Assembly (NCBI GenBank): GCA_014871385.1 | Contig: CM026425.1 | Span: 868,001-932,000 of the forward strand | Source: Ceratodon purpureus | Lineage: Eukaryota; Streptophyta; Bryopsida; Pseudoditrichales; Ditrichaceae | Reading direction: 5' to 3' | DNA: 64,000 nt | Shown here: positions 27,260 through 54,534 of the stretch, piece after piece | Layout: every line of letters begins with the position of its first letter | Position numbering within the stretch: the stretch's first letter is position 1 | Translations under genes and position numbers: made by a program | The notes under the pieces: generated by a model | What the model saw: the letters and a program-made list of their open reading frames with translations, nothing else | Told to the model about the DNA's origin: nothing | Database searches by the model: none

Positions 27260-30200
27260 GATCGCATGCCTCACGCTTGCATGCTCTTCGATACCTCTCC
27301 ACACTCACAAATACTCACAATTTACAATCCTCAATGATACACATGACTGCAGTCTGCGTTTCGCCCAACCTGAGCACACAGCGAGTCAAGAGAATTGTTG
27401 TCAGTCTCCAGGCTAAACCCTAATGAATTTGAGCTGTTTAGAGATGCACACTCCCTGAGAAGTCCTCTGGAATTAAGTAATGCACACGAGACGTAATTCC
27501 AGAGGACTTCATTCGTACAGGGCATTGATTGCAAGAGTTGCAACACCAAGATTGAAGGCGGAATTCGAGAACTTGACAATCGGGGACATTCGTTGTTTAG
27601 GTTATGAACCCAACATCCCCGGCCCGGGCAGAACTTGCTCTGCTCCTCGTTCGCTCTAGTTTTGGTCGCAATCTGAAATAGCCTAGTCCAGACTGACACC
27701 GCAACCTATTATTGCAAATTGCTGGGCACTTTTTTCCCCAAGCTCCCACAACTAACTTACACTCAGCACAATCAAGTAACTTAATGTTATGTTGGTGCTG
27801 CTAGCCTACACACTGCCGTGTCTGTTCCTGCTGCGGCACGAGCCAGCATATATGTCAGCCTGACTGGTAGCTGAGCAAACTAATTTCTGGTTATGCGCTC
27901 ACTTCTGGAGCGAGCAGAAAACAGAGAGGGAACTCGACGAATCGAATGTGGAATCATTTCAGCGAAAATTGCCATTTCTTCTCAGATCGTCCCACAAGAT
28001 TCCATGCAATTGCTAAATCACGTTGCCAGCCAGCCAGCCAGCCAGCCTGGTATCTCAACCGATGCAATTCCATCCGCAAGGCTGCGTCGAATCTAAGTTA
28101 ATTCTGACGCGATCAGAGAGCTGACGATGCTTCACAGAGTGAAACTTTGATCCAGACTCCAGAGCTGATGGAGGGTACTAAGTTAGGTAGCGTTCAGGTC
28201 AGTGGAGTCTGGCGGTAGTAGGTACCAAACGGAAGGAAAGAATAGAAAGCAGGAGGAGCAATCCATTCTCACGGCTGTCCATAATCATGAAGTTACACAA
28301 AAAGGAAATGGGAAACTTGATCGTGGCGCAGAGCAGACGTAGAGAAGAGTCTGCAGGGAAGGGGATGGAAAAGGTGGCTGTTCCAGGGGTCTAGATTCCA
28401 ACTGCATTTTCTACTGCCCAATATGTGTAGAGTAGTACAATATGCAGGCCAGGGTCACAGTAGTACTCGATCGCTTCAAAAACGAGATTAGTACTTGCGG
28501 TGTAGCAGGTGGAGAAAGCTGCCTGCGATGGAACTCGTAGGAGAATGGTTGCGATAGTGTACGTACAGAATGAAATGAAATGAGTGGGCAGCAGCAGCAG
28601 CAGCAGCAGCGGTCCGTCCGTGATGGCCATGGCTGAGAGGGAGAGAGAGATGGGGGCACTAAGTTAGTAGAAAAGGAGACGTGGATATATGAGGAAGGGG
28701 ATGCAAAGAAGGCAGGCAGGCAGGCAAGCAGGGGCAGGTAGGTAACTTAGATAGGTGGTGGGAACCAAGCAAGCAAGCAAGCAAGGGATGCTGATGCTGA
28801 TGCTGATGCAGATGCAGATGCGGATGCGCGAGAGTAAGTTAGTACCAGTGCAGTGTGCACCCCACTCGACTCCCCTCAGGGCTCAGGCTCGCCCCTCCGT
28901 CCCCTCCTCTGAGTCCCCTCCCCTCCCCTCTGCTCCGGAGTCCGCTCCAGTAACTTATCATAGATAGTGGTGGTGAGTCGTGACGAGACAGCTTGCGTGA
29001 GCTTGAGCGGGACAGGGACAGCACACTACAGTAAATTGATGCACAGTACAGTACAGTACAGTGGCGTCTGCACTCAAACCCTGGGATCACTGATTCACTG
29101 GGCAGTGGGAATGGAATGGTCCCCACTCCCCACTCCCCACTCCCCACTCCCCACTCCCGACTCCCGGTCTTGGTGCCTAGGGACCTAGGGTTGGACATTT
29201 GTGCTGTGCAGTGTGCAGTGTGTATGTGTATCTGTCACGTCTTTTTCACCATGTGCGTGTTCCCATTCACGTCCCCCAACCCTCAGCCCTGATACCTGAT
29301 CCCTGACCCCCTCCGCACATGTAGTCCAGGGACACTCAAGTCAAGCCCCGAGGGAGGGAGGGAGGGAGCGAGGGGCGCCCCCCATGCCCCATGCCCCGTT
29401 GCACCACTCTCATCTCTTCCTCCACCTCATCATACTTCCATGAAGTGGGAGAATGGTAACTCAAGGTAACTTCTACTTGGATGAAGTAACATTCCAGGAG
29501 AATGGACATTCCCCGAGGTTTCTCTAGTGTGACTCCCACTATTCTATTTTCTCACTCCTATGTCAAATCCATAGCAAAAAGGATCCCCAAGCTTTTACAT
29601 ACCTAACCATGACAAATATTCACTTCCAAAATCTTCTATTCCTCATTGTTCTTTTGACATGGAAAAAATCATTCAATCAAAACCAAAAATTCATAGCATT
29701 TTGAATATTTTAAAGTATGGTTCCATTGAAGTAAATGAGGACGTGAGAGAAAGAATGCTAATTATTCTATAGATACCAAAAAATATAGAAGGTCAATAAA
29801 TGGGCAATGAAATAGAATGTACTATATTTTCAAGTTTTTTTTAATAAATATGAACCTTGAACAAAATATGAATGAATATATGAAATTTATGAATATAATA
29901 CATCACATGTAAAAAGGTTTTTTGAAACAAACTCCAAAATAATTGTTTGAATGTAAAAGATATTACCTTACACTTACAATATGTTAAATTTTAGTTTTCA
30001 AATAGATTAATATAGAAATTTATTTTTCATAATTACAAATAAAATATAAATTTAAAAACAATGAAGATCTTAATAATTTAGATAGATACCAAAAAATGAA
30101 TAATATTTTAAGAACTCTACCATTTTTCAAATGTCATTTGGTCTTTAAAAAGTCGCCTTTCTACAAAACAAAATTCGAGCAGCCAATAACCAATGGAAAT

Positions 30201-30781: not shown

Positions 30782-30786
30782 CACAG
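30782..30786. repeat. CACAG target-site duplication, left of the gypsy element
   Basis: CACAG precedes the left LTR and is repeated directly after the right LTR at 47167-47171, the 5-bp duplication typical of LTR retrotransposon integration. Confidence 0.95.
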
Positions 30787-32539
30787 TGTGAGCTGATTTT
30801 TTTTGAGAAAAGTCCCTTTTCAGCAAAAACAGTGTAAATAGGACCAAGTTACCATGTCAATTTGAAATCCATGTAGATAGTGGCTGTAGAAATCTGGTTG
30901 AGAGTCAAATAGACATAGTGTAGAATTCAGGGGACATGACCCTACCTAGAGACACGACTTGTCAAATTGACTCTACGTACAGGCACACCCTTTAGAAATT
31001 AAGGCATAACTAGGAATTAAGGAAGAAGAAAGAATTACTTCACCACACCACACAACACTGTGTGAGTGATAGTCACATTATGTAAAAAATATAAAAATAG
31101 AATTCCATTGTCTAATTGATTGTCAACTTGACTCTGAGTAGCTCACTGTATATTTGATTCACAATGCTCTTTGTCAAATGGAACTATAGCTTCGATGCAC
31201 AGTGTATTAATCTGCAGAACTGTAGAATCAGAATGGAGAACTGGAAACAACTGATTACTGTCTAATTGATTTGCGAAGCTTACTGTCTAATTAATTTGCG
31301 AAGCTTACTGTCAAATTGAAACTGCAGATCTGCTGAACAGTGAATTTATATGGGAGATAGAATGAATAGTTCGATCCAATGGCTACTGTCTAATTGACAA
31401 ATTGAATTCAGATTGCTTGCTGCATAATGTCTAGTTAACACTGGTCAAATGGACAAGATGGTGGTTCGGTATGCATCCATGGGCATGCATACAGTGTCAA
31501 CTTGACTTGCATGGACCATGTCTAATTGACTCAGTGGAGAGTTGGTGAGAGTTACAGTGAATGTGGTGACTCACACTGGATACTGTCTATTTGAAATCAA
31601 AGATGCTGATGGAGCAGAGTGAAGAGTGGGTGAGATTGTCTATTTGAACTCAGAACGAAGGAAGAGTTACTGAGTGAATAGAAAATAGAAATTATGGAAA
31701 ATAAACACAACAGTTTGTCCAATTGACATTGCATTGTTGTGAATGGGAATTATGGAGAATGAGAGTTCCATGTGAGTACTGGAACAGTGAAGTGAGTATT
31801 ACTTGATAGTCTTTTAAATTAGATTGGCCATCTGAAATAGAAGACTGAGAATGACTTAGAATTTATGGAAGCCAGATTGAGTACATTGATGGATAAAAGT
31901 GACATTAATTATTAAGGAGTGATCAGCCTTAGTGATTATTAGTTCTCATTATAATAAAACTTGAATGTATTCAACTGAGCAATAGTACAGTCATTGTAAT
32001 TGAGTAATACAATTGAGAAGTATAGTTGTGATGAATGGTAGAGTTGGAGTATGATTGAATGTGAATGAGTAGACAGTGATTACATGTCTATTTGAAATGC
32101 GATGGATGGGAGGAAAAAGATGAAGACAAGCAAGGAGTTGCTTGAGATAAGTTAATCTATCATAACATATCCCAAAGCATCATTCATAGGCATAAATAGG
32201 TTGAACACTAGATTCTAACCTAGTAATGAATGAACTTGCATATGCATAATAAATGCATTGTCTAATTGAACTAGAAAGGGAGTGATGGCAATAAACCGAG
32301 AGATGGTACTTGTCAATTTGAACTCCCATTACCCTTGAACCAATTAAGAGTTTGGATTACTTGGGTTTTATGTGACTTGGGGTAATTAAGACATTAAAAT
32401 TATAAAGAGATTCTTTTAAGGAAATACTTTGCATTCTATACATTCTTTACTTACTACAGTGACCTTTAGTTACGTTAAAAGCTAAACGAAAAGACCTATT
32501 CCCATGACTTACCACTATTTGTAAATTTTACCAATTACA
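30787..32539 (+). repeat. 5' LTR of the gypsy element, 1753 bp
   Basis: It starts TGTGAGCTG and ends ATTACA (TG...CA borders). It holds roughly twenty copies of a degenerate TGTC-W-A-N-T-T-GA motif (see 30961-30971 and 31122-31132). A 25-bp tandem duplication (31256-31280, 31281-31305) is absent from the 3' LTR. The promoter should lie here, but no unambiguous TATA box was chosen. Confidence 0.95.
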
Positions 32540-32542
32540 TTT

Positions 32543-32560
32543 TGGCGCCGCTGCCGGGGA
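32543..32560 (+). other. Primer-binding site
   Basis: TGGCGCCGCTGCCGGGGA begins 3 nt after the LTR end. TGG pairs with the CCA end of a tRNA, and the sequence resembles sites used by plant Tat/Athila elements, which are complementary to a tRNA ending GGCGCCA (tRNA-Asp type). The tRNA identity is inference. Confidence 0.8.
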
Positions 32561-33057
32561 ATAGGTTCCGGTTAAGCGGTAGCTAAAAGTGTAGATAAAG
32601 TAAAGAATAGAAGATCTTTGTGCTTTAAGCTAGAAGATACCTCGTGTTTCTTTAAGAATTTAAAATTTCAACTTCTTCTTAAGAAAGACTTCTTAAGCAA
32701 GTGGTTGTGTATTCTTTTAAGGACAAAGAGGAAATCTTAATAATCAGCTTTAACCTTTAAAGGAATCTTCTAAGAGAAGAAAGGGTCATAGTAAAAGTAA
32801 AACATAGATTAAGTATCGAATTAACTCAGAGAAGTGTATGGTAACAAAATATTGTACTATACCATGGGTTAATAAAAGAAACTTTAGACTTTTGAAATGT
32901 CTTAAGATGTGAGTTTATGAATTTTCTTAAAGGTTGATTGAGAGATAGTAATTAACCTTTCTGAGATTGTGAGTAAGAGGTAGAAGATCGTAATTAGAAG
33001 ATTGCGATATAGGTTTAGAGTATATGAGTTTTGATTGATGACAATCAATAGTAAATA

Positions 33058-33555
33058 ATGTATCCATTTCCATGGGAAGTCCAACAAAAGGATATTAATC
33101 AATTCTTTGAAGGACCTTTCCTATTTGCTGCACTTTACCGAGTTTATAGGGGAGCATATTTTGGGCAAGGTTTTCAAATTTGTGGTACACACTCTAAATT
33201 TGATTCAAACCTTCAAAATAAATTTGACCAACTACCCATTGATATCAAAAGAATAATATTAGCAAAAATTTGGGATAATGGAACAAGGTTTAATGCTTTG
33301 ATAGTTTTCAAAGGAGAATTATTTTTACAAAGCAATTTACATTTTCTATTTGCCCAATATGGGAGATTGAAAAATTTAACTTCACCTATAATCTCTAAAG
33401 GTTGTGGAGCATGGAATGGATACAAATTAGATACCAAAACTTATATCTTTAAATACGGACCTCAGAAACTAGATAGTCAAGTTTTAATTCCAGATTTTCT
33501 ATCTAGAGAATCTAACAAACCAATTTCAATTGCGTTTGGATTATTATGTCTTTAA
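33058..33555 (+). CDS. Leader ORF 1 of the gypsy element, 165 aa, unknown
   Basis: The ORF begins with ATG at 33058 and lies about 500 nt after the primer-binding site. The product is rich in Phe, Leu, Ile and Asn and contains WEVQQKDINQFFEGPFL and GCGAWNGYKLDTKTYIFKYG. No domain is recognised and no signal peptide or membrane span is obvious. AT-rich codon use matches gag-pol. The next ORF starts 4 nt after its stop, suggesting a polycistronic leader or coding remnants. Confidence 0.5.
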   Translation: MYPFPWEVQQKDINQFFEGPFLFAALYRVYRGAYFGQGFQICGTHSKFDSNLQNKFDQLPIDIKRIILAKIWDNGTRFNALIVFKGELFLQSNLHFLFAQYGRLKNLTSPIISKGCGAWNGYKLDTKTYIFKYGPQKLDSQVLIPDFLSRESNKPISIAFGLLCL

Positions 33556-33559
33556 AGAC

Positions 33560-33859
33560 ATGACAATCGAGAGTGAAACAATTATCGAACAATTAGTCAG
33601 ATTAAGACGATTGTTGATAATTTATGAGGGAATACAAAAAAATGAGGAAGCATTGATTCACCTTTTAGCTAAAGAGATAGATCAAATTAGCAAGGAAGGT
33701 GAATCAAATTCTGAACAGAACTTTTTAATAGAAAGGTTGATTAGTGAACATAATTATCCTAGGAATTTTCAAGAAGAAGAGGTTGATGAGATATTTGAAG
33801 TAGAACCTTTCACCTTGAATACTTGGATAATATCTTGGTTTGATACCAATAAGAGTTAG
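33560..33859 (+). CDS. Leader ORF 2 of the gypsy element, 99 aa, unknown
   Basis: It starts at the ATG 33560, just after leader ORF 1. The product is acidic and helix-prone (ETIIEQLVRLRRLLIIYEG, EALIHLLAKEIDQI), so a short coiled coil is possible. Not recognised. Confidence 0.45.
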   Translation: MTIESETIIEQLVRLRRLLIIYEGIQKNEEALIHLLAKEIDQISKEGESNSEQNFLIERLISEHNYPRNFQEEEVDEIFEVEPFTLNTWIISWFDTNKS

Positions 33860-33889
33860 TCGTTATTCTAATTGAATGGAATAAAGAAA

Positions 33890-34039
33890 ATGGTAAAAGT
33901 AGAGGAGGAACGGTTAAGGGAATTAGCCAAACTTGGGCGACAAAACTACTATAGACAATTCAGAGCACCTGTAAAACAAAACAAGGTTGGGAGAATCATA
34001 AAAAAAAAAAAAACTTTCTTAAGAGAAGTAGGGAAGTAA
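33890..34039 (+). CDS. Leader ORF 3 of the gypsy element, 49 aa, basic
   Basis: A 50-codon frame (ATG 33890, TAA 34037-34039) encodes a short, strongly basic peptide with a run of lysines (GRIIKKKKTFL) from an A-rich stretch. It could bind nucleic acid or be a chance ORF. It completes a series of three short ORFs before gag-pol. Confidence 0.3.
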   Translation: MVKVEEERLRELAKLGRQNYYRQFRAPVKQNKVGRIIKKKKTFLREVGK

Positions 34040-34163
34040 TAGTTAAAAGAAATAGGTAGAGTGAACAACAAAATTAAGTGATCATTTTTCTTCAAGTAAA
34101 ATTGGGGATAGAAAATCATTTAGGTCTAAGCTTCAATGCTTAAAGCCTAAATGGCATTTATCA

Positions 34164-37100
34164 ATGTCTGAGAAGGATAAAGAATTGAGAGAAAAGCAAA
34201 ATATTGCAAGAAATGAACGTTTGATAAAACGGATTGAAAGGAAAGAAAAACAGATCTTAACATTAGTATCTGCCAATCCTGTTTACAATTCAACACCATC
34301 CCCAGTACTTAAAGAAGAAACTATTCCCTCAAATCTTAATACCTCAACTAGCCAAGTTAGTGAAACAATTCAAAATCCACTTTCTATAGAAGAACAACAC
34401 CAAAGTTCTCTAAAGAATGAGGATTTAGAATTACCAGAGGAAGGTTTGAGAAGGTCGCATTATTTATGTTGTCACTCACCACCATTTAGGAGGTTAACCT
34501 GGGGATCTTCAAGTGAAGTAAACCCACTTCAAATTAATTCTGAAAAGGGAAAGAAGGTAGAAGAATTAGTCACACCTTCTTCCTCAGAATTTGAGAGTTC
34601 TTTGAAGAATCCATTTACCACAGAGGTTGGAGAACCTTCTAACCTACCTGAATTCTCAACACCAACCCAAACTAATTTTGAAACACCAAAACCTTATCTC
34701 GACGAAGCTGTACAAACCTTTGTTACAGGTATAGAGAGTTGGGTAAATGATATTGCAGATATTACTGAGGTAGAAACCACAACCCCTATTGAAACATACA
34801 TAAAGGAAATTTCATTAGAAGACAATAGAAAAGAGTGGAATGATGAGGAAGTAGCTTATGAGGCATCTCTTCCAGAAACATTTCCAACTATACAACCTTT
34901 TACCAACCCTTATGAACCATCTAATGATGAAAGTAATGAGGATTGGGAAGGGATAAATTGTTGGAGATTTTCATCAGGAGATTCCTCTGGGAGTAGTAGT
35001 AGTGAGAGTAGTGATACAAGGAGAGAAACAAGCGAAGAAGAATTGTTAAGACCTTCTTCTTCACCTCCTTCACGACCTCCTCCCAGACCTCCAACTCCTC
35101 ATCCTAGACCTCCACCACCCCCACCACCACTACCACCTCCACCACAGACTTTACCACCTAATATCATGGCACAACAAAGGATTTTAAACATAGCACCATA
35201 TCCTATGTACCATGGATATCCAGGGTCTGACCCCGATAGACATTTGGAAAGATTTAGAGTGGTTGCACAAGCAAATCAGTTACCTGAACATTTATATTTA
35301 AGCACTTTCCCAAGCACATTGCTTGATGATGCTCATGAATGGTATGTCCAATTGTTAACCGTATCCACAAGATGGGAAGATTTAAGGAGAGCTTTTCTTG
35401 ATAGGTTTCGACCTAGATCATTTATACCAGGGTTAATCGATAGATTTCGAACTATAAGAATGGGTATAAATGAGGGTATAGATTCCTATTATACAAGATT
35501 TAATGCTCTTCTAAAGAGATGGACAAATCATGGGTTAACTGATCAAGTATTAGCATGTACCTTTGTAGGAGGGGTTTGGCCTGATGAGTTAAGAATTTAC
35601 TTAAAAGAACGAAACCCTCAAGATATTGCTAGTGCTTATACACAAGCTAAAACTTGGGAAGAGGCTAGAGTAAATACTGATTTTGCACAATATGCAGAAG
35701 TATATCCACCTAGGAGAGAAGGTTATGATCATGCTCAAGGCATGGACGCTTATGGCCGTGATCATTATCCTTATTTACCTCCAGCGAGATCACAACTACC
35801 AGTTTCGACTTATCCTTCAAATCCCACAGTCATGAATCCTCAACCTTTAGCAATCAAAGCCCCTACAGATGATATATTAATGAACAACATTACTAAATTA
35901 GAGAAAAAATTAAATGAACTATCGGTACAAATAACTCATGGGAAAGATAAACGTTCAAAACCTACAAACATGCGTACCAATATGTGGTGCACTAATTGTA
36001 ATGGACATGGACATCTTTCCAATGAGTGTTCTACTCCGATAGGTGGGGAATTTAGTAATAAACCTAAATGTAGTTTTTGTGGAGGACCTCATGACGTATC
36101 TAAATGTTGGAATTTGGGGAAAGTAGTAGCTGCAGTGAGTTCTAATTTGCAGGCAAACGGGACAAATAATAACAAAGCACCTTATAGTGTAACTTCAAAA
36201 CGTCCGTTTACTAGACCAAATGTAGGACCTCCCTATAGACCTGGAGATGGGAGACCAAGGTGGAATGATACTTATAATGCTGCACCCGTGTGGAATGGAC
36301 CGCCTACTAATCCTAATACCCATAGATATGGAACTCCTGAGAAAGGAAAACACTTAGTGTGTTATAACTGTCAGGAATTAGGACATATGGCGAGAGATTG
36401 TCCAAATCCAAAGAAACAAATTGGGTATAATCCTTTATGTGGGAGGTGTAAACAAAGTGGTCATATAGCAAATAATTGTACAGCTCCAGCACCTGTGAAG
36501 AGTGTTCAATTTAGTGAAATTGAAAACTCAAGGAATGTAAATCAAATAACACAATATGAGAGAGATAAACCTCAGGAGGTTTATATAACACGTGCACAAG
36601 CCAAAAAGGCTATGGTTGAAAGTGATCAACATAGCAGCTCTGATAGTGACTATAGAAGTAGTAGAGTGAGAAAAAACAACACACCTTCGAAAGTAGTTAA
36701 GGAAAAGGATGTTGTAAAACCTAAACCAATATTTCCCTTAATACCTCCAAACATTCCCATAAATAGTGAGAAAACAATACCATTAGAAGAACCTAAGGAG
36801 AAGGATAAGGGTAAGCAACCAGTTGAAGAACCTACAATATTACCTCAAGATTTACCAAATGATTTTGCTAACTTACCTAGTACTTCAAATTCATTACCTA
36901 CGTTTTATAGACCACCTAAAAAGAAACTAAAAGAAACACCAACTATTCCTAAGAAAAGGAAGTATAATCGTACAATGAAATTGTCAGAGGGAATGAATCC
37001 ATATGATATCTTAACAAATATGGATAAAATCCAACCTGACATATCTTTGAGGCAATTGTTAGCAATAGCACCTAAATGTAGAGGTGAACTAAGTTCTTCG

Positions 37101-40100
37101 TTGGTTAGAAAAAGGAGTAAAATCGTGGATGTGCATCATATATCCTTGGACCCTGGAGCACCTACTGTGGATGTAATCATAGATGGTTCTCTAATTGAAG
37201 GAGTCCAAGTAGATAGTGGTTCTAGTGTCAACTTAATGAATGTTGACACCATGGAAGAACTAGGATTAACTCATATGACTTCCACTCCTATTATCTTAAG
37301 AATGGCAGATCAAAGTCGAGTAGTACCATTAGGTATTTTGAGAGGAATAGTTACAACTATAGGAGGACTTAACTTTAAGATTAATTATATAATCTTTAAA
37401 GTGAGTGAATCCATATCAACATACCCAATATTACTAGGTCGTCCATGGCTTAAATCTGCTAGAGCTAAAGATGATTGGGGAAAGGGAACATTAACTATAA
37501 AAGCAAAAGGGAAACGGGTTGTATTACCAATGTTTCCAGTTAAATATCATGGTGAGACTCAAGAAGAAGACACAGATGTCACTTCTGAAGCCTCATATGA
37601 TTCAAATAGCGAAAGTACTAAAGTAGTAGAACAAGAGAAAATGCCTGAGTTTAGATGTTTAGGGACTGGAGAATATTCCTTTCTGAATAACGAAGTAGAT
37701 TCAGATGATGCTATTCTAGCATGGGAAAATTCGCCAGTACTTAATGTAACCGCCGAAATTGAGTCGGAATTAGAACCTCAATATTTGAGTGATTCTGAAG
37801 AATTAATGGAAAACATGTCTCATATAAAAGGTAGTAATATAAGTCCTGTTAAAAGCACTTGCATTGATATGAATTTGGGAACTCCAGAAGAGCCCAAAAA
37901 CATAAGAATTTATGAAGGATTAAATCCAAATGAATATGAACAATGGTTTAAATTCTTTAAAGAATGTAAAGATGCATTTGCATGGACTTATAAAGACCTT
38001 AAAGGAATACCTCCAGAAGTCTGTCAACATAGAATTATTTTAGAACCTAATACAAAACCGGTAAGACAAAGACAATATCGTATGAACCCAAAATATTCTC
38101 TCATGGTTAAAGAGGAAATAGATAAACTACTAGAATGTAATTTTATATATCCAGTACCTTATAGTGAGTGGGTATCTCCAATTGTTGTGGTGCCTAAGAA
38201 AAACGGGAAGCTAAGGATTTGTCAGGATTTCAGGAAATTAAATAGTGTCACTAAAAAAGATTATTTCCCTTTACCCTTTACGGATGCAATCCTTGATGGT
38301 GTAGCAGGACATGAATGTTATTCTTTTTTAGATGGATTTTCTGGTTATAATCAAGTACAAATCGCCCCGGAAGATAAACCTCTAACAACTTCTACAACTG
38401 ATTGGGGAACCTTTGCTTATAATGTCATGCCCTTTGGATTGTGCAATGCACCAGCTACTTTCCAAAGAGCAATGACAACAGCCTTTCAGGAATATTTAAG
38501 AAAATTTATTGAAATTTTCTTAGATGATTTTTGTGTCTTTAGTCCTAAAGCTGAACACCAGAAATGTTTAAAGAAATGTTTTGAACAATGTGAAAAATAT
38601 GGTATTTCAATAAACGCAGCCAAGTCCGAATTCGCTGTACCTTGTGGACGATTAGTGGGTCATATAGTTTCAAAAGAAGGTATAGGTGTTGATCCAGATA
38701 AAGTAGCTGCTATCAAAAAATTAGAAATACCTAAACATATGACAGAACTTAAAGGATTTTTAGGAGCTTCTGGATATTATAGAAGATTTATCTACTTTTA
38801 TGCAGAAGTAGCAGCTCCTTTAACGCATCTAACAAAACAAACCGATACTCCTGGTGTTTGGACGGAAGAGTGCACGAAAGCATTTAATAAACTTAAAAAA
38901 CGGCTTAGTAATGCTCCCATTCTAATACCACCAGATTGGGAGAAACCGTTTGAAGTTTATGTAGATGCATCAAATTATGCTATTGGGAGTGTTCTCAGTC
39001 AAAAGGACGCAAAAGGTCATGATCGACCTATATATTTTTCTAGTAGACAATTAAGTGCTGCTGAGAAAAATTACTCTGTAACGGAGAGAGAAGGGTTAGG
39101 AATGATATATTCAGTCCAAAAATATAGACATTATTTATTAGGTTATAAGTTCACTTTTCATGTAGATCATGATGCACTTAAATATATGGTTAATAAACCA
39201 CAATTGAGTGGAAGAATAGCTAGATGGGTATTGTTACTTCAAGAATTTGATTTTACGGTTAATGTAAGGCCTGGCAAAAAACATGCCAATGCCGATTTCT
39301 TATCACGAATTAGTAAGGAAGTGAATCCAGAATCCATAGATGATAGTTTTCCAGATGCGCATATTTTTCAAGTGGATATCATTCCAGCAGAATATGCTGA
39401 TGTTATTCATTACTTGAGTACCAATACCTTCCCTCAAGACTATACAGATAAACAAAAACAAAAATTAATATTTAAATCTCAACCATATACATTAATTGCA
39501 AAAGTTCTATATAAAAGGGGTAAAGACGGACTTTTAAGGAGATGTATTAATCCAAGTGAGGTACCATTAATTCTTAAAGGTTGTCATGACGCTGCATGTG
39601 GCGGTCATTTTGCCGGAATGGTAACTGCACATAAAGCGTTACAATCCGGATATTGGTGGCCAACACTCTTTGGGGATGCACATAGATATACTAAAAAATG
39701 TGATCCATGCCAAAGAGTGGGAAAACCTACACCTTCAAAGGCAATGCCTTTAAATCCAATTTTAGCTCAAACACCGTTTGAGAAATGGGGAATTGATTTT
39801 GTAGGACCTATTAAACCACCTAGTCGACATGGTCGAAATAGATACATATTAATTGCAACTGAATATGTAACTAAATGGGCAGAAGCTCAACCTACGAAAA
39901 CCGATGATGCTAAAACTGTTGCCAAATTTTTATATGAAAATATTATTACAAGATTTGGATGTCCAAAAGAATTAGTAAGTGATCGGGGAACTCATTTTCT
40001 TAATGAAATAATTGAACAACTAACTGAAAAATATTCAATTAAACATAGAAAATCTACACCATATCACCCCCGTGCTAATGGTCAGACAGAGAAAACAAAC

Positions 40101-40640
40101 GGTATATTATGTCGGATAATTACTAAAACTGTACAGGGTTCAAATACGGATTGGGATGCAAGAGTACCAGATGCATTATGGGCTTATCGATGTGCATTTA
40201 AAGTATCTACAAAATTTACTCCATTTCAATTAGTTTATGGTCAAGAGGCTATCTTACCAATTGAAATGGAACTCCCGTCTTTAAGAATTGCATTAGATGA
40301 ACGATTAGGAGACGAAGAATCTTTAAGACATAGACTTTATATGCTCGAAAAATTAGATGAAACAAGAGCCCAAGCGTATCTTAATAATGAGGCTATTCAA
40401 AAACATCGTAAAACATATTATGATAGCAAATTGGAACCCAAAGTTTTGAATCCTAATGATTTAGTATTATTATATGATAGCCGATTTCAAAAATTTCCAG
40501 GAAAATTTAGAATGCGTTGGTTTGGACCATATCGGGTATTAAAATCGTATCCCAATGGTTCAGTTGAACTTCAAGATTTTGCAGGAAAAATTCATGCCAC
40601 AAGATATAATGGTTTTCGTTTGAAACCATACATAACTTGA
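34164..40640 (+). CDS. Ty3/gypsy Gag-Pol polyprotein, 2158 aa, single frame
   Basis: Domains by approximate residue: acidic and Pro-rich N-terminus (1-335); Gag core (345-505, HEWYVQL and DRFRPRSF); four CCHC zinc knuckles, two near 608 and 635 and two near 733 and 758; aspartic protease (VDSGSSVNL, about 1015); reverse transcriptase (about 1335-1500, with FLDD in place of YLDD); RNase H (VDASNYAIGSVL, about 1600); integrase with HHCC zinc domain (about 1805-1850) and the D,D,E core (GIDFVGPI, SDRGTHF, NGQTEKTNG); GPY-type C-terminus (WFGPYRV, about 2118). No stop or frameshift interrupts it. Gag and Pol are in one frame, so it needs no frameshift for expression. It would make virus-like particles, copy the RNA and integrate the DNA. 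Confidence 0.97.
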   Translation: MSEKDKELREKQNIARNERLIKRIERKEKQILTLVSANPVYNSTPSPVLKEETIPSNLNTSTSQVSETIQNPLSIEEQHQSSLKNEDLELPEEGLRRSHYLCCHSPPFRRLTWGSSSEVNPLQINSEKGKKVEELVTPSSSEFESSLKNPFTTEVGEPSNLPEFSTPTQTNFETPKPYLDEAVQTFVTGIESWVNDIADITEVETTTPIETYIKEISLEDNRKEWNDEEVAYEASLPETFPTIQPFTNPYEPSNDESNEDWEGINCWRFSSGDSSGSSSSESSDTRRETSEEELLRPSSSPPSRPPPRPPTPHPRPPPPPPPLPPPPQTLPPNIMAQQRILNIAPYPMYHGYPGSDPDRHLERFRVVAQANQLPEHLYLSTFPSTLLDDAHEWYVQLLTVSTRWEDLRRAFLDRFRPRSFIPGLIDRFRTIRMGINEGIDSYYTRFNALLKRWTNHGLTDQVLACTFVGGVWPDELRIYLKERNPQDIASAYTQAKTWEEARVNTDFAQYAEVYPPRREGYDHAQGMDAYGRDHYPYLPPARSQLPVSTYPSNPTVMNPQPLAIKAPTDDILMNNITKLEKKLNELSVQITHGKDKRSKPTNMRTNMWCTNCNGHGHLSNECSTPIGGEFSNKPKCSFCGGPHDVSKCWNLGKVVAAVSSNLQANGTNNNKAPYSVTSKRPFTRPNVGPPYRPGDGRPRWNDTYNAAPVWNGPPTNPNTHRYGTPEKGKHLVCYNCQELGHMARDCPNPKKQIGYNPLCGRCKQSGHIANNCTAPAPVKSVQFSEIENSRNVNQITQYERDKPQEVYITRAQAKKAMVESDQHSSSDSDYRSSRVRKNNTPSKVVKEKDVVKPKPIFPLIPPNIPINSEKTIPLEEPKEKDKGKQPVEEPTILPQDLPNDFANLPSTSNSLPTFYRPPKKKLKETPTIPKKRKYNRTMKLSEGMNPYDILTNMDKIQPDISLRQLLAIAPKCRGELSSSLVRKRSKIVDVHHISLDPGAPTVDVIIDGSLIEGVQVDSGSSVNLMNVDTMEELGLTHMTSTPIILRMADQSRVVPLGILRGIVTTIGGLNFKINYIIFKVSESISTYPILLGRPWLKSARAKDDWGKGTLTIKAKGKRVVLPMFPVKYHGETQEEDTDVTSEASYDSNSESTKVVEQEKMPEFRCLGTGEYSFLNNEVDSDDAILAWENSPVLNVTAEIESELEPQYLSDSEELMENMSHIKGSNISPVKSTCIDMNLGTPEEPKNIRIYEGLNPNEYEQWFKFFKECKDAFAWTYKDLKGIPPEVCQHRIILEPNTKPVRQRQYRMNPKYSLMVKEEIDKLLECNFIYPVPYSEWVSPIVVVPKKNGKLRICQDFRKLNSVTKKDYFPLPFTDAILDGVAGHECYSFLDGFSGYNQVQIAPEDKPLTTSTTDWGTFAYNVMPFGLCNAPATFQRAMTTAFQEYLRKFIEIFLDDFCVFSPKAEHQKCLKKCFEQCEKYGISINAAKSEFAVPCGRLVGHIVSKEGIGVDPDKVAAIKKLEIPKHMTELKGFLGASGYYRRFIYFYAEVAAPLTHLTKQTDTPGVWTEECTKAFNKLKKRLSNAPILIPPDWEKPFEVYVDASNYAIGSVLSQKDAKGHDRPIYFSSRQLSAAEKNYSVTEREGLGMIYSVQKYRHYLLGYKFTFHVDHDALKYMVNKPQLSGRIARWVLLLQEFDFTVNVRPGKKHANADFLSRISKEVNPESIDDSFPDAHIFQVDIIPAEYADVIHYLSTNTFPQDYTDKQKQKLIFKSQPYTLIAKVLYKRGKDGLLRRCINPSEVPLILKGCHDAACGGHFAGMVTAHKALQSGYWWPTLFGDAHRYTKKCDPCQRVGKPTPSKAMPLNPILAQTPFEKWGIDFVGPIKPPSRHGRNRYILIATEYVTKWAEAQPTKTDDAKTVAKFLYENIITRFGCPKELVSDRGTHFLNEIIEQLTEKYSIKHRKSTPYHPRANGQTEKTNGILCRIITKTVQGSNTDWDARVPDALWAYRCAFKVSTKFTPFQLVYGQEAILPIEMELPSLRIALDERLGDEESLRHRLYMLEKLDETRAQAYLNNEAIQKHRKTYYDSKLEPKVLNPNDLVLLYDSRFQKFPGKFRMRWFGPYRVLKSYPNGSVELQDFAGKIHATRYNGFRLKPYIT

Positions 40641-40657
40641 GGACAAGTTCTAGATTT

Positions 40658-40667
40658 AAGAGGGGGG
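40658..40667 (+). other. Internal polypurine-tract-like site just after pol
   Basis: AAGAGGGGGG lies 18 nt after the gag-pol stop, exactly where simpler gypsy elements have their 3' polypurine tract and LTR. The true tract is at 45425-45435. It may be an ancestral or central priming site. Confidence 0.55.
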
Positions 40668-42270
40668 CAGTAAGGGTAAAAATTCAAAAATTTTAAAAAA
40701 AAACTGTCCTACTTAAGTACTAGAAACTGTGAAATTTTGAAAAAATTAAAAAACCAGCGATCTAAAAAACTGAGTTTACAAAGAACAAGTTCAACAAATT
40801 TAAATTCTGAACTTGAGAATTTTTCGAAGCAAATGGAAATTACTAATTGACAAGTAGACACTAACTAAAATGATGAGTAAGTAGTAATGATCAGAAAATA
40901 CAATTAGTGAGTGGAAAGACGGCTGATATGATAACATGAATTGGGGGCTGTGATCATGATGACCACGTTGCATGGAAATGAGTGTAAAATCCCACTAACT
41001 GTCAAATAGACAAAAGAGACTGGTCGAGTCGAGTAGACCACATCATCTTCTCTAAATGGGAAAACAGAACCTCAAAACAAACACATTTTCTTGAGAGGCA
41101 CCGGCTGCAAGTCTGAGAGAAGTGGACGAGGTTTTGTCAAGTAGACAGAGCGCTCCTGTGTGAGTGATCAGGGTTAGGAGTGGAGAAAGATAGTGGTCAA
41201 GTGGACACGGAAGGAGTCACATTGTGAGGAGATCAGAATGAAGATAGAGTGAGATACCGAGAAGACTGAGAGGAAGAGCAGTTTAGTCGAGGGTCACATT
41301 GTCGCATTCTGTGTAACTAAGCTGTGAGAGATACCGAGAGACCCAAGAGAAAGGAAGGAGCAAAACCAAGTGAGTATTGTTGTAATCACAGCAGGTGTGT
41401 GTGAGAGAATTGAGCAATTGAAAGGGGAGCGAGGTACGTTTCAGTTACACATTGAAGGTGAGTTGTTGTCAACTTTGCATACTGTTTTGTCAATTGGACA
41501 ACCTGATTAGCAGTTACAGATATCTTAGGTTAAGAAAACACGATGTTGTCGAAGGAAGTGTTGCGATGTTCTCAATGTTAGAAGTAAGTTGATATGATAC
41601 CTTAGGTCAACTGGACCCAGAGTTTCTGATCATTGTGAGTGTCAATTGGAAACAGTGCGACAGAAGGGGAAGACGAAGCATTGCATCTTGAGAGGCATAT
41701 CTCTCATAGTCAAGTTGACACATTGCGGGTGAGTTTCATTGCATCCATTCTGTTGTGTCAAGTTGATTACATGTTGTCTTCGCATCTTCTTCTTGCATGT
41801 CCAATTGAACTGTCACTTGAAAAAAATGAGACTGTCCAGTAGACAAGGATGAAGGAATCACAAAACACAACTTGCCGAGAGAAAGAAAGTGTAAGAAACA
41901 AGGAACGAAACTGAAACATGGTGCTGTGATGTATGTATGATGATAGTAATGTAGGAAAATATCACAAACTGATTGCCGAGAGAAAGGAAGGAGAAGAACA
42001 GAAAGAATGAAGCTTAATATTTTCAATGGAATGTATGCTTAGATGATTGTGAAGTAGAAAATTAGGGATAGAAGTGATTGCCGAGTGGAAGAAGTGTTTT
42101 ATAGTTTTAAAAGTAAGGAAATAACAAAGATAAAATTCCCGAGAGTTCAAGTAGACAGTGCCGAGAGTTTCAGGGAGAGTCAATGCCGAGAAAAATTTCA
42201 ATTAGACGAAGTAAAAACTGAAGCAAACTAACTGCCGAGTGTGTAGTCTAATAGACAGAAAGAAGGAACA
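40668..42270 (+). other. Post-pol spacer of the gypsy element, motif-rich
   Basis: It contains no long ORF but many copies of the palindromic motif, for example GTCTAATAGAC at 42246-42256, and repeated GCCGAGAG words. It separates pol from the 3' ORF and may carry a promoter or splice acceptor for that ORF. Confidence 0.6.
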
Positions 42271-45200
42271 ATGGTAAACGAAGGTCAAGTTGACAGAGAA
42301 GCCAGAGGAACTGATCAAGGGAGGCCCCAACCCGAAGTTGCAGGATCGGTCAAATTGACAAGGCCAATTGCTCGGCCCAAAGTGAAGGCGATGAAGAACA
42401 AGAAGTCAAAGAAGACTGTGCTTGCGGAGGCAATGCAACAGGACCTGTCAAGTGGACCAAGACGTCAAATTGAACACTTGGAGTTGAAGAAGATTGACCG
42501 GGAGGCATGGCCGCAGTTTGAAGCCAACCGGGAGAACTTTGTGAAGGCAGGACTTTGGGACTTCGTGATGGTTGTCTTCGAGGATCAGGATGATGGGAGG
42601 ATCAATCAATTCCTGACTTCTTCGGAGTATGGATCCAGAGGGATGGCCGTGGTGGATGGAAGAAGCGTACCTTTCAACTCGACCACAATTTCCAAGATGC
42701 TGAAGCTGCACCAAGGGGACAGGTTGTTAACGGAGGAAGTGGGAGGAATCTCCGAGGAAGATTTAGCCAACGTCTTTGACAGAGCTGCCAAGACACAGAG
42801 TGGCTACAAGTTGGCGAATGCGAAAGAGACGTGGAAGGAGTGGTTGTTATTCTTCAATCAGAGAATCATGCTGGCGGAGAAGGGGCCGCTGATCATGTCG
42901 AAGGAAGGAGTAGCAGCCGCGATTTACGGGTGGAATGGTGTCAAATTGAGTTGGGGAAACATTCTATTTGACAACATCAAGGTGGAGATTAGCAAGAAGC
43001 ATACTAGATATCCCATCACACTCTACAGTGCGATTTACCTCTCAGAGCTGACCAAGCCATCAAGTCAAGTGGATTCAGGTGTGTCAACTGGACCGGTGAG
43101 AGTGCTTCCAGACTTGCTCAATTTGACAAGGGATCCAGAGCCGAGAGCTTCGACTCCATCATCCTCGAGGGCCAACAAAGTAAAGAAGAGGAGGGTGGAT
43201 GACTCCTTACCTCAATGTCTATTTGAACTGAACCCGAGGTTGGGAAGAGGAGCAAGATCAGCCAGTCAAGTAGACAATCGTGAACCTGCAAGGCAACCCG
43301 CGTTGCAGCTCACGCAGACTGAGGTGGCTGCACAGCTCAAGGATGCACTGGTGAGAGAAACGCATCTACGGTTGAAGATCAAGGAATTGGAGCGTACAGT
43401 GTTCAACTTGACCACTGAGAACAACCTAGCTGTGGAAGATATACGAAGGCTCAATACACAGTTGGCTAACTTAGCGGAATTGAATGAGGAATTGACCAAG
43501 CCTACCGTTGCAGACATTGAGATCGACACTGGGAAGTCGTTCCAAGAGTTGTATAACGATGAGAAGCAGCACCGCATCGAACTTCAACGTCAATTTGACC
43601 AACTGAATGATGCCAAGATCGCCATTTCCAAGCTCTGCACCGAGGAGAGGAATGAGAAGAAAAAGCTCAAGGCAGAATTGGAAAGCTTGAAGAAAAATCC
43701 GATGGTGAAGGTTGTCAACCCCTCGGATTATGCGACTCTGAAGACCAATAACGAATTGTACCACCGTACTATCGAGATTGGTAAGAAGCAGTTGCAGGAA
43801 GCCCGGATGGAGAACAGGGCGTTAAGAGGAGAACTTTGGAAGGTCGACTTGACATCACCACCAAGTTATTCCCTTTTCCATGCATACGAGTTGCAAAGGG
43901 ATAACTGGTTGGCTATGGTGGGGAAAGACAGGGGATGTCTATTGGACAGCGGTGATTTCGATGCAGTATGGGCAGCGTCTAGTAGACATGCTAATCAGCA
44001 GAATCTCATCTGTGAGATGATAGCAAGAGGCGATGTCCAGTTGACCGACCAGAAGAAGTTGTTTCTTCCCATAGGTCACTTGGGAGCTCGAGTAGTGTTA
44101 TACTACACCACTCTGGAGGAGCAACTCCAGAAGAGACGTCAACTTGACATGTCGGTGAAGAGTCACAGACTGGTTAAGATGGGCGATTCGAGTAGACAGG
44201 TGGTGGATGTTGCGGAAAAGATGCCAAGTGAGGAGCTCAAGGAGTGGACAGCAACTTTGGAGGGGCTGCTCAAGGAGTTCGATGACCGTGATAACATCCT
44301 TGTCAAGTTGTCATGTGTGCTGGAGAGGGAGACTTATGTTCAAAGGGGCGAGTTGACCACAGCACACTATGTTTACGGGATGCACAAGGTGAGGCAGCAG
44401 ATCATGGACACCTTGAGAGAGTTGAAGAAGGACCACCTACTCATCACTAGCCATGATCTTCAAGTCGAGTTGACCTTGCCTCCACCCACATACAAGGCAC
44501 CGGGGTGGCTGTCCATTCGAACACCGGTTACAGGATCCCCCTTAACAGTCAAGTACTTGGGAAATTATGCGAGTCTATTTGACAATGAAGCGGTTTTTCC
44601 GCTACCCACGTGGACTGCGATTGAGTGGCTGCTGGAGGATTACGGACTGTCTCGAAGGGAGGAGCGGTCATGGGATTTGATCTACAAGGAGATAGTAAAT
44701 GTCAATTGGACCGATGCGGCTCCTGAGGCTGTGAGGACAAATGGACATTTCTGCGACTGTAGAAGAAGATTCAAGTGGGCTCCAGATAGTCTAATTGACT
44801 CGGTGGAGTATAATTGGCCACTGATCCCTGGTCAATTTGACACGGCATGGAATTGTGCCACGGCCTATGAGGGCTTCTGGCAGATTCACCACACACACAC
44901 CGACCCTGTGTGTTTCCGAGCAGCAATCTTCTCCAAGTTTTTGGCTCGGATTTGCAGGGATTTCAAGGTGGTGGTGAATGTGAACCGCTACGATGAGAGG
45001 AGGCCGGAGTTTTTGATCAATCTCAAGCTCCGTTACCACTCAAGTCGTTGGGGGAAGATGCTGGAAGTCATGGCCATGACTCATTTTCTTTACGGGTCTA
45101 ATGGATGCTTCATCAACGAATTCAGGGGAACTCGGAAGATAGCTATTGACAACTGGCTAACCTTCCAGCATTCCAATAACACTGAATTACTTCGGAAGGA

Positions 45201-45306
45201 TGATGAAGTAAGGAGGGAAGTGTCTAAGCTCATGGCACAGCGGATCCAGAAGGAGAGCCATTACGGTGACCAGCACCGTAATCACCACCGACGTCACCAT
45301 GTCTAG
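42271..45306 (+). CDS. Extra 3' ORF of the gypsy element, 1011 aa, putative plant transposon protein-like with coiled coil
   Basis: The frame opens at ATG 42271, with higher GC than gag-pol. The N-terminus is basic (ARPKVKAMKNKKSKK, possible NLS). Residues about 70-265 (NQFLTSSEYGSRGMAVVDGRSVPF, WKEWLLFFNQRIM, YPITLYSAIYLSEL) resemble in arrangement the putative plant transposon domain (Transposase_32 type) of Tat/Ogre-like elements; this is pattern-based. Residues about 350-520 form a long coiled coil (LRLKIKELERTVFNL, KKLKAELESLKK). The C-terminal part has Trp-rich segments and ends His/Arg-rich. The gene is saturated with the GTC-H-A-N-T-D-GAC motif, e.g. 42284-42294, 42349-42359 and 42447-42457, in different codon phases. 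It lacks env features (no signal peptide or membrane span seen). Function is unknown. Confidence 0.75.
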   Translation: MVNEGQVDREARGTDQGRPQPEVAGSVKLTRPIARPKVKAMKNKKSKKTVLAEAMQQDLSSGPRRQIEHLELKKIDREAWPQFEANRENFVKAGLWDFVMVVFEDQDDGRINQFLTSSEYGSRGMAVVDGRSVPFNSTTISKMLKLHQGDRLLTEEVGGISEEDLANVFDRAAKTQSGYKLANAKETWKEWLLFFNQRIMLAEKGPLIMSKEGVAAAIYGWNGVKLSWGNILFDNIKVEISKKHTRYPITLYSAIYLSELTKPSSQVDSGVSTGPVRVLPDLLNLTRDPEPRASTPSSSRANKVKKRRVDDSLPQCLFELNPRLGRGARSASQVDNREPARQPALQLTQTEVAAQLKDALVRETHLRLKIKELERTVFNLTTENNLAVEDIRRLNTQLANLAELNEELTKPTVADIEIDTGKSFQELYNDEKQHRIELQRQFDQLNDAKIAISKLCTEERNEKKKLKAELESLKKNPMVKVVNPSDYATLKTNNELYHRTIEIGKKQLQEARMENRALRGELWKVDLTSPPSYSLFHAYELQRDNWLAMVGKDRGCLLDSGDFDAVWAASSRHANQQNLICEMIARGDVQLTDQKKLFLPIGHLGARVVLYYTTLEEQLQKRRQLDMSVKSHRLVKMGDSSRQVVDVAEKMPSEELKEWTATLEGLLKEFDDRDNILVKLSCVLERETYVQRGELTTAHYVYGMHKVRQQIMDTLRELKKDHLLITSHDLQVELTLPPPTYKAPGWLSIRTPVTGSPLTVKYLGNYASLFDNEAVFPLPTWTAIEWLLEDYGLSRREERSWDLIYKEIVNVNWTDAAPEAVRTNGHFCDCRRRFKWAPDSLIDSVEYNWPLIPGQFDTAWNCATAYEGFWQIHHTHTDPVCFRAAIFSKFLARICRDFKVVVNVNRYDERRPEFLINLKLRYHSSRWGKMLEVMAMTHFLYGSNGCFINEFRGTRKIAIDNWLTFQHSNNTELLRKDDEVRREVSKLMAQRIQKESHYGDQHRNHHRRHHV

Positions 45307-45424
45307 TAGACAGTAACTGCAGGGTGTGTGCAAGTCAATCTTTGTATATAATTTTTGAGTCTAGTTGACATAGTGTCTAGTAGACAATGCTGTAAATGTG
45401 AAACTTGCCGGGAGTCAAGTAGAC

Positions 45425-45435
45425 AAAGAGGGGGG
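45425..45435 (+). other. Polypurine tract of the gypsy element
   Basis: AAAGAGGGGGG lies 3 nt before the 3' LTR, the expected position of the plus-strand primer. Confidence 0.9.
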
Positions 45436-45438
45436 CTA

Positions 45439-47166
45439 TGTGAGCTGATTATTTTTGAGAAAAGTCCCTTTTCAGCAAAAACAGTGTAAATAGGACCAAG
45501 TTACCATGTCAATTTGAAATCCATGTAGATAGTGGCTGTAGAAATCTGGTTGAGAGTCAAATAGACATAGTGTAGAATTCAGGGGACATGACCCTACCTA
45601 GAGACACGACTTGTCAAATTGACTCTACGTACAGGCACACCCTTTAGAAATTAAGGCATAACTAGGAATTAAGGAAGAAGAAAGAATTACTTCACCACAC
45701 CACACAACACTGTGTGAGTGATAGTCACATTATGTAAAAAATATAAAAATAGAATTCCATTGTCTAATTGATTGTCAACTTGACTCTGAGTAGCTCACTG
45801 TATATTTGATTCACAATGCTCTTTGTCAAATGGAACTATAGCTTCGATGCACAGTGTATTAATCTGCAGAACTGTAGAATCAGAATGGAGAACTGGAAAC
45901 AACTGATTACTGTCTAATTGATTTGCGAAGCTTACTATCAAATTGAAACTGCAGATCTGCTGAACAGTGAATTTATATGGGAGATAGAATGAATAGTTCG
46001 ATCCAATGGCTACTGTCTAATTGACAAATTGAATTCAGATTGCTTGCTGCATAATGTCTAGTTAACACTGGTCAAATGGACAAGATGGTGGTTCGGTATG
46101 CATCCATGGGCATGCATACAGTGTCAACTTGACTTGCATGGACCATGTCTAATTGACTCAGTGGAGAGTTGGTGAGAGTTACAGTGAATGTGGTGACTCA
46201 CACTGGATACTGTCTATTTGAAATCAAAGATGCTGATGGAGCAGAGTGAAGAGTGGGTGAGATTGTCTATTTGAACTCAGAACGAAGGAAGAGTTACTGA
46301 GTGAATAGAAAATAGAAATTATGGAAAATAAACACAACAGTTTGTCCAATTGACATTGCATTGTTGTGAATGGGAATTATGGAGAATGAGAGTTCCATGT
46401 GAGTACTGGAACAGTGAAGTGAGTATTACTTGATAGTCTTTTAAATTAGATTGGCCATCTGAAATAGAAGACTGAGAATGACTTAGAATTTATGGAAGCC
46501 AGATTGAGTACATTGATGGATAAAAGTGACATTAATTATTAAGGAGTGATCAGCCTTAGTGATTATTAGTTCTCATTATAATAAAACTTGAATGTATTCA
46601 ACTGAGCAATAGTACAGTCATTGTAATTGAGTAATACAATTGAGAAGTATAGTTGTGATGAATGGTAGAGTTGGAGTATGATTGAATGTGAATGAGTAGA
46701 CAGTGATTACATGTCTATTTGAAATGCGATGGATGGGAGGAAAAAGATGAAGACAAGCAAGGAGTTGCTTGAGATAAGTTAATCTATCATAACATATCCC
46801 AAAGCATCATTCATAGGCATAAATAGGTTGAACACTAGATTCTAACCTAGTAATGAATGAACTTGCATATGCATAATAAATGCATTGTCTAATTGAACTA
46901 GAAAGGGAGTGATGGCAATAAACCGAGAGATGGTACTTGTCAATTTGAACTCCCATTACCCTTGAACCAATTAAGAGTTTGGATTACTTGGGTTTTATGT
47001 GACTTGGGGTAATTAAGACATTAAAATTATAAAGAGATTCTTTTAAGGAAATACTTTGCATTCTATACATTCTTTACTTACTACAGTGACCTTTAGTTAC
47101 GTTAAAAGCTAAACGAAAAGACCTATTCCCATGACTTACCACTATTTGTAAATTTTACCAATTACA
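45439..47166 (+). repeat. 3' LTR of the gypsy element, 1728 bp
   Basis: Same TGTGAGCTG...ATTACA borders as the 5' LTR. By eye it differs by a T/A change near the start, a G/A change near 45949, and lack of one 25-bp tandem copy; no other change was seen. Confidence 0.95.
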
Positions 47167-47171
47167 CACAG
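47167..47171. repeat. CACAG target-site duplication, right of the gypsy element
   Basis: Direct copy of 30782-30786. Confidence 0.95.
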
Positions 47172-47653: not shown

Positions 47654-47805
47654 GCGAGGGTGTTAGGGTTTGGAGTTCCTTTTTGCGAACTGGGAGTAGA
47701 GAGTGAAAGAGCGGTGAGGTGTTTTTGTCTTTTCCGATTCACCGGCAGTTGGATTGCCGGGTTTCTTGCTGTAGGAGTGTAGAGGGAGAGACGTAAGGCG
47801 TAGAG

Positions 47806-54160: not shown

Positions 54161-54534
54161 GCAAAAACAAAATCACTATCAGTCTTTTATAAATAATTGC
54201 TTGAGTCAATTTCCAAATGAAGAGAGGTATAGTGTGCGCATTCAAATGATCAAAACAGAACTTGCTATTGGAACGTGTACTTTGATACAGTATGTTACGT
54301 GTAACAACGTTTTCCAATCTGTCTTAGTTATTATTACTCTCTCTTCGTTCCCGACTTGTCCAATGGACAGTCACTGAAAAAAAACGGGTAAGAACAAGGT
54401 AACCAGGAAAAACCACCACTGTATCTCGTTACGTATAACACTATATATTTAATTGGCATCAGTCCAAGCTATGCCAAGCTCCGATAGCTATGCCATGCGC
54501 ACAAAGAGTGAAGCCATCCTTCTTCCCCGCAAGC

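What the first reader, a model, noticed from the sequence alone, without database searches (positions are those of the whole stretch)
30787..47166. Dispersed palindromic 11-mer GTC-H-A-N-T-D-GAC throughout LTRs, spacer and 3' ORF of the gypsy element
The degenerate 11-mer (H = A/C/T, D = A/G/T) is its own reverse complement. Exact examples are 30961-30971, 31122-31132, 42246-42256, 42284-42294, 42349-42359 and 42447-42457. Near copies (TGTCTAATTGAA and similar) occur about twenty times per LTR and dozens of times in 40.7-45.4 kb. In the 3' ORF the motif falls in all three codon phases, so it is kept or spread as DNA, not as a peptide. I saw essentially none in gag-pol. VANDAL elements of Arabidopsis carry arrays of short motifs bound by their own anti-silencing VANC protein; a similar system in a retrotransposon is an inference.
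Basis: partly seen in the sequence, partly recalled or inferred. Interest (0 to 1): 0.88.

Follow-up and report, generated by a model that had tools for sequence, protein, structure and literature searches.

The report
Plant retrotransposon with conserved palindrome array
A plant jumping element carries dozens of copies of one short two-fold symmetric DNA word that selection keeps nearly unchanged, and it encodes a protein whose predicted first domain resembles an Arabidopsis transposon protein solved bound to DNA, so this retrotransposon may mark and protect its own copies.

The parts
30787..47166 (+). Ty3/gypsy LTR element, flanked by 5-bp target-site duplication CACAG (30782-30786, 47167-47171)
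   Evidence: LTR pair, TG...CA ends, TSD, PBS and PPT read directly
30787..32539 (+). 5' LTR (1753 bp). Exact motif starts: 30904, 30961, 31122, 31388, 31444, 31496, 31520, 31717; 11 one-mismatch sites
31255..31319 (+). 25-bp tandem repeat, 2.6 copies, with motif-like sites; the 3' LTR has one unit fewer
32540..34064 (+). 5' leader with primer-binding site; no exact or one-mismatch motif
34065..40640 (+). gag-pol single ORF (2191 codons): gag, zinc knuckles, RT, RNase H, integrase (protease below cut-off); no exact motif, 3 one-mismatch
40641..42246 (+). pol-ORF3 spacer. Exact motif starts: 41001, 41136, 41196, 41489, 41606, 41709, 41834 (and 42246, straddling the boundary)
42271..45306 (+). 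ORF3 (1011 aa, same strand as gag-pol). Exact motif starts: 42284, 42349, 42447, 43083, 43265, 43589, 43937, 43977, 44035, 44138, 44573, 44701, 44789, 44831; 45301 covers the stop codon
42436..43074 (+). ORF3 N-terminal domain (residues 56-268), VANC21-like predicted fold; weak Transposase_32
43300..43854 (+). ORF3 coiled-coil region (about residues 344-528)
   Evidence: predicted long helices; matches shown lie mostly over this region in coiled-coil proteins
43858..45285 (+). ORF3 conserved C-terminal domain (residues 530-1005) with invariant Cys, Trp and His
45307..45438 (+). tail and polypurine tract; exact motif starts 45359, 45375, 45414
45439..47166 (+). 3' LTR (1728 bp). Exact motif starts: 45556, 45613, 45774, 46015, 46071, 46123, 46147, 46344; 10 one-mismatch sites

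Best explanation
The array is a set of binding sites for a sequence-specific, probably dimeric, DNA-binding protein: each monomer reads TDGACA and the two face each other across one free base. SHOWN: the word is enriched, concentrated in this element family, and held by purifying selection as DNA in the LTR, the spacer and coding sequence. By coating the LTR promoter and the ORF3 transcription unit at many sites it would keep the element free of repressive marks or active, as VANC proteins do for VANDAL transposons; a single stray site in the host genome would be too sparse to matter.
Confidence: 0.5

Rival explanations
1. A host transcription factor (dimeric) reads the sites; the element has built itself an enhancer array driving the LTR promoter and a promoter for ORF3. 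ORF3 has another job.
For: Palindromic repeated boxes in the LTR upstream of the TATA box and upstream of the env gene are known in Sireviruses and were read as possibly regulatory (PMC2829016 section 9). Selection on DNA fits any reader. Sister family B keeps an ORF3 relative without the array. The half-site TTGAC resembles a WRKY W-box and TGTC an ARF site (both recalled).
Against: Fourteen exact sites inside coding sequence at all phases, held against synonymous change, are more than an enhancer seems to need. TAGAC and TGGAC half-sites also occur, which a W-box core would not allow (recalled rule). The motif is not enriched outside the element in the stretch listed, though a host factor's sites need not be enriched genome-wide.
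Confidence: 0.33
2. An architectural or insulator-type array, as the Su(Hw) sites of Drosophila gypsy (recalled): a host chromatin protein clusters there and shields the element from its surroundings.
For: Many degenerate sites of one kind in one element; selection on the sites.
Against: Sites are spread over LTRs, spacer and a coding region and not in one block; no host protein is indicated; ORF3 offers an element-encoded candidate.
Confidence: 0.1
3. Mutational or repeat artefact: tandem or dispersed copying of a short unit without function, or a mutation cold spot.
For: One 25-bp tandem unit in the LTR carries a motif-like site and varies between the two LTRs. Singletons are also about twofold rarer in the core.
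Against: Flanks of the sites share no sequence beyond one base on each side. Shared variants are depleted far more than singletons, and degenerate positions inside the site still vary, which copying or a cold spot does not explain.
Confidence: 0.03
4. The motif acts as RNA (packaging or dimerisation signal).
For: Palindromes can pair between two RNAs; much of the LTR and the 3' region would be in the transcript (inference).
Against: The two halves are not required to be complementary: 13 of 34 exact sites are, 13.5 expected.
Confidence: 0.03

Closest known systems
VANC anti-silencing system of VANDAL (Mutator-like) transposons, Arabidopsis (PMC5735166 passages; PMC10398659 abstract)
   Same: Short motif at high density in the family's own copies and sparse elsewhere; element-encoded accessory protein; N-terminal domain of ORF3 fits the VANC21-DNA crystal structure 9lnj best; number of motif-bearing tandem units changes.
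   Different: LTR retrotransposon, not a DNA transposon; palindromic GTC-N5-GAC, not YAGTATTAY; sites also throughout a coding region; mostly dispersed, not tandem; no sequence match to VANC21 found and no DUF1985 match among the N-domain fragments scanned; no methylation data.
Repeated palindromic motif (RM) boxes of Sirevirus (Ty1/copia) retrotransposons (PMC2829016 section 9)
   Same: Family-specific palindrome repeated in the LTR and again between pol and a 3' accessory (env-like) gene, in two elements with a few copies at the start of that gene; up to 32 copies reported.
   Different: Ty3/gypsy element; no CGG-CCG core and low CpG (LTR CpG o/e 0.23); sites run through the whole accessory ORF; here selection on the sites is measured and the ORF has a candidate DNA-binding fold.
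Additional ORFs of plant Ty3/gypsy elements, e.g. sunflower Athila aORF with Transposase_32 PF20167 (PMC11728184 passages)
   Same: Extra ORF with a weak PF20167 match of the N-terminal domain (E 0.009 for this ORF, best relative 7e-06).
   Different: This ORF also carries a coiled coil and a conserved C-terminal domain, and a motif array around and inside it. PMC12844716 (passages) says it remains to be investigated whether Tork and Athila encode similar ORFs and whether such proteins modulate the epigenetic landscape.
Su(Hw) insulator sites in Drosophila gypsy (recalled)
   Same: Cluster of degenerate binding sites for one protein inside a gypsy-type element.
   Different: Host protein, one block of sites, animal (recalled).

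Membership tests
VANC/VANDAL anti-silencing system | Element encodes a VANC protein (DUF1985 family) | tested here: inconclusive
VANC/VANDAL anti-silencing system | Short motif dense in own copies, sparse elsewhere | tested here: met
   sparseness elsewhere from the rest of the window and a partly listed contig only
VANC/VANDAL anti-silencing system | Motif mainly in non-coding regions, as tandem repeats | tested here: not met
   14 exact sites within ORF3; in the element, Tandem Repeats Finder shows one motif-bearing array, 31255-31319
VANC/VANDAL anti-silencing system | Mutator-like DNA transposon | tested here: not met
   LTRs, RT, RNase H, integrase
VANC/VANDAL anti-silencing system | Protein binds the motif and causes loss of DNA methylation | not testable with these tools
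   needs binding assay and methylome
Sirevirus RM boxes | Ty1/copia Sirevirus backbone (integrase before RT; order recalled) | tested here: not met
   RT 1376-1533, RNase H 1624-1728, integrase core 1903-2002 in the polyprotein
Sirevirus RM boxes | Palindromic motif, eight or more copies, in LTR and upstream of the 3' gene | tested here: met
Sirevirus RM boxes | CGG-CCG core forming CpG islands | tested here: not met
   motif GTC-N5-GAC; LTR CpG o/e 0.23
Ty3/gypsy LTR retrotransposon | LTR pair, PBS, PPT, TSD, RT-RNaseH-integrase order | tested here: met
Ty3/gypsy, Athila-type lineage | RT phylogeny within Athila | not tested
   genome search with RT-integrase did not complete; no tree made
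Env-like 3' gene | Transmembrane segment | tested here: not met
   highest 19-residue Kyte-Doolittle mean 1.18; no dedicated predictor was run
Transposase_32 (PF20167) | Pfam gathering score 45 bits | tested here: not met
   16.3 bits for this ORF, E 0.009; 12 of 41 members of A3 match at E <= 0.1, best 9.1e-05

The most novel reading that the evidence does not exclude
This is a self-recognition anti-silencing (or self-activation) system in an LTR retrotransposon: ORF3, a VANC-fold protein, binds the palindrome array, and the array has been written even into ORF3's own coding sequence under selection. Because the N-terminal domain also resembles Transposase_32 of Athila-type extra ORFs, the unexplained extra ORFs of plant Ty3/gypsy elements may in general be target-specific DNA-binding proteins sharing a fold, and perhaps an origin, with VANC.
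Probability: 0.35. Interest if true: 0.92.

Novelty: new variant of a known kind. Interest (0 to 1): 0.82.

Why it matters
Self-targeted anti-silencing is documented for Mutator-like DNA transposons (papers seen). What extra ORFs of plant LTR retrotransposons do is open: PMC7264820 (passages) calls functions of a class of them yet unknown, and PMC12844716 (passages) says their epigenetic role remains to be investigated. Here one family offers a protein with a testable fold, a precise 13-bp site, dozens of sites per copy, at least 45 genomic copies, and a sister family without a detected array as a natural control. It also shows a regulatory DNA word held inside coding sequence across three phases.

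Tried and rejected
Relatives in viral contigs and genome contigs: none confirmed. Rfam at gathering scores: none. Pfam on the whole ORF3 at E <= 1: none. First structure prediction with two sequences: pLDDT 31.6, discarded. Foldseek on the better model: nothing at E <= 0.001, and the 50 rows printed do not include VANC21. PDB profile of the whole ORF3: the 60 rows shown are mostly coiled-coil stretches. No PDB match to the C-terminal domain stood out, but that is no proof of a new fold; it was not folded alone. Motif search in family B (four loci, two subtypes): no palindrome, spaced pair or seed beyond the level of the gag-pol control, apart from C-runs. Helical phasing of site spacings: none (R 0.08 at 10.5 bp, 50 gaps). 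ORF3 as envelope: rejected, no transmembrane-like segment. Protein constraint as the cause of motif conservation: rejected, motif residues in the C-terminal domain are not more conserved among relatives (0.357 vs 0.389), and only 2 of 17 fourfold core sites vary. P0001 (97% identical) was only looked at by eye. One search aligned the minus-strand loci unturned and was replaced.

Rows dropped: of the 46 ORF3 matches only the 30 with loci were aligned. L010 is the window itself, L039 was dropped from the site tests (foreign spacer, 0.416 identity). In some searches the LTR part of L020 (0.71 identity) was left out as well, so 28 copies count (27 in the LTR); it was kept. Sites were chosen in the window copy. 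P0041 was left out of alignment A3.
Full report
WHAT IS THERE. The window lies at G000:C5:868001-932000 in a 362.5-Mb genome of 151 contigs; contig C6 is 110.5 Mb. From recall, size and giant contig fit a moss such as Ceratodon with its large sex chromosomes; no call names the organism. At 30787-47166 stands one Ty3/gypsy element with a CACAG target duplication, LTRs of 1753 and 1728 bp, a gag-pol ORF of 2191 codons, a 1.6-kb spacer and a same-strand ORF3 of 1011 aa. The LTRs differ by two substitutions and one 25-bp unit, so the insertion is young. That unit belongs to a tandem repeat at 31255-31319 which holds motif-like sites.

THE MOTIF IS REAL. GTCHANTDGAC: 43 in the window against 0.59 expected, 42 of them in the element. 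By part, exact/one mismatch: LTR5 8/11, leader 0/0, gag-pol 0/3, spacer 7/7, ORF3 14/12, tail 3/0, LTR3 8/10, plus two exact sites on part boundaries. In LTR5 plus 40641-45438, GTC followed by GAC at start distance 8 occurs 37 times, against at most 4 at any other distance from 3 to 30. Without assuming the motif, the top dyad among 3- and 4-mers and 16 gaps is GTC-N5-GAC in the LTR (p 1.4e-08), the spacer (1.7e-09) and ORF3 (3.1e-15) separately. It is not in the five rows shown for leader plus gag-pol or for any other region; there the only dyads below 1e-06 are an AT repeat and TAA-N1 (1.8e-07). Seed scans with mismatches agree. Flanks of the sites share nothing beyond T before and A after (36 of 64 each).

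IT IS KEPT AS DNA. In ORF3 the sites lie in all three phases, and synonymous shuffles give 0.68 sites on average (maximum 4 in 500 shuffles) against 14. An ORF3 search of the own genome gives 46 matching rows, a lower bound, 30 of them full length without a stop, the window's included. Thirty had loci; 28 copies besides the window were usable (rows dropped are listed under Tried and rejected). The spacer is 85-91% identical to the window's in 24 of 28 copies (93-98% in the other four), yet every one of the 28 keeps 5-8 exact sites there. 33 of 34 sites persist in at least 24 of 28 copies; the exception, 41606, is kept in 14. Per-cell variation at the eight fixed bases against the same mask shifted: spacer 0.0065 vs 0.134, ORF3 0.0006 vs 0.029, LTR 0.0006 vs 0.023; none of 96 shifts was as low in any part. 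The three degenerate positions inside the site vary more than the core, 0.036, 0.017 and 0.052 per cell in spacer, ORF3 and LTR, against 0.118, 0.033 and 0.028 outside sites, so they are constrained in spacer and ORF3 too; 14 of 19 changed cells at H are to G, the base the pattern excludes. In the core there are 12 singleton and 3 shared alleles in 272 positions, against 544 and 878 in 5591 elsewhere. Scaled, shared alleles are about 14 times rarer and singletons about twice rarer. Singletons include mutations after insertion, which should be neutral, so this is the pattern of selection on the mobile lineage. Fourfold-degenerate ORF3 sites: 2 variable of 17 in the core (2 cells) against 135 of 356 outside (867 cells). 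Among relatives the C-terminal-domain residues at motif positions are not specially conserved (0.357 vs 0.389), so the protein does not explain it.

AGAINST. A sister family has an ORF3 relative: 50-54% identical to P0005 in its main rows, while family A matches P0005 at about 40%; the end of gag-pol is about 76% identical to family A over 143 residues, seen in subtype B1 only. 14 of its 18 rows hold stops. In four loci of two subtypes there is no exact family-A motif and only 1-2 one-mismatch sites, and no array of another word was found. In the LTRs all one-mismatch sites (11 of 11 and 10 of 10) lack the downstream half, against 7 left, 3 central and 9 right in spacer plus ORF3; a symmetric dimer does not predict that, while VANC21 motifs are also arrayed in one orientation (PMC5735166, passages).

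HOST USE. Genome-wide the motif occurs at 4873 places against 2063 for the reversed pattern. In the listed part of contig C1 between 227.7 kb and 3012.9 kb I count 9 isolated sites (about 3.2 per Mb), below the control's 5.7 per Mb, so the excess seems to be the element family. This is an estimate from a partial list.

KNOWN KINDS. Two are close. Sirevirus RM boxes (PMC2829016 section 9): same layout of family-specific palindromes in the LTR and before a 3' gene, but Ty1/copia, CGG-CCG, CpG islands, and without a measure of selection or a named reader in the section read. Paper searches listed no report that I recognised of a VANC-like protein with a self-motif array in an LTR retrotransposon; only the listed rows were seen, most subscription papers are not in that library, and the EMBO J 2022 VANC paper was not held.

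VERDICT. A functional DNA word array: about 0.95 (selection shown). ORF3 as reader: about 0.5-0.55. Anti-silencing as the outcome: about 0.4. New variant of a known kind, with high interest because the test is simple and the question is open.

Noticed in passing
30787-32539 and 45439-47166: All one-mismatch motif sites in the LTRs (11 of 11; 10 of 10) are defective in the downstream half-site, so the LTR sites have an orientation although the motif is a palindrome.
   Followed up: partly
L040-L043: Sister family in the same genome with an ORF3 relative, two subtypes, 14 of 18 rows with stops; no motif array found.
   Followed up: partly
L039: A copy whose spacer is unrelated (0.416 identity, no motif) although ORF3 and LTR match: recombination, insertion or replacement.
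   Followed up: no
33055-33555: Open frame of 166 codons in the leader between 5' LTR and gag-pol, no Pfam match.
   Followed up: partly
47797-50016: Two adjacent + strand ORFs just downstream of the element, perhaps from another retroelement (by eye); only sub-threshold Pfam matches.
   Followed up: partly
8359-10833 (-): 824-codon ORF that looks by eye like a piggyBac-type transposase (recalled resemblance; one search lists the ORF, no family search made).
   Followed up: no
24785-27304 (-): 839-codon ORF that looks by eye like a plant molybdenum-cofactor sulfurase family protein (recalled resemblance, not searched).
   Followed up: no
54358-54368: The one exact motif outside the element in this window; isolated, no one-mismatch site in its kilobase.
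   Followed up: no
ORF3 C-terminal domain, 43858-45285: Conserved domain of about 450 residues with invariant Cys, His and Trp and 41 matches in public genomes and metagenomes; no Pfam match at E <= 10 for this copy.
   Followed up: partly
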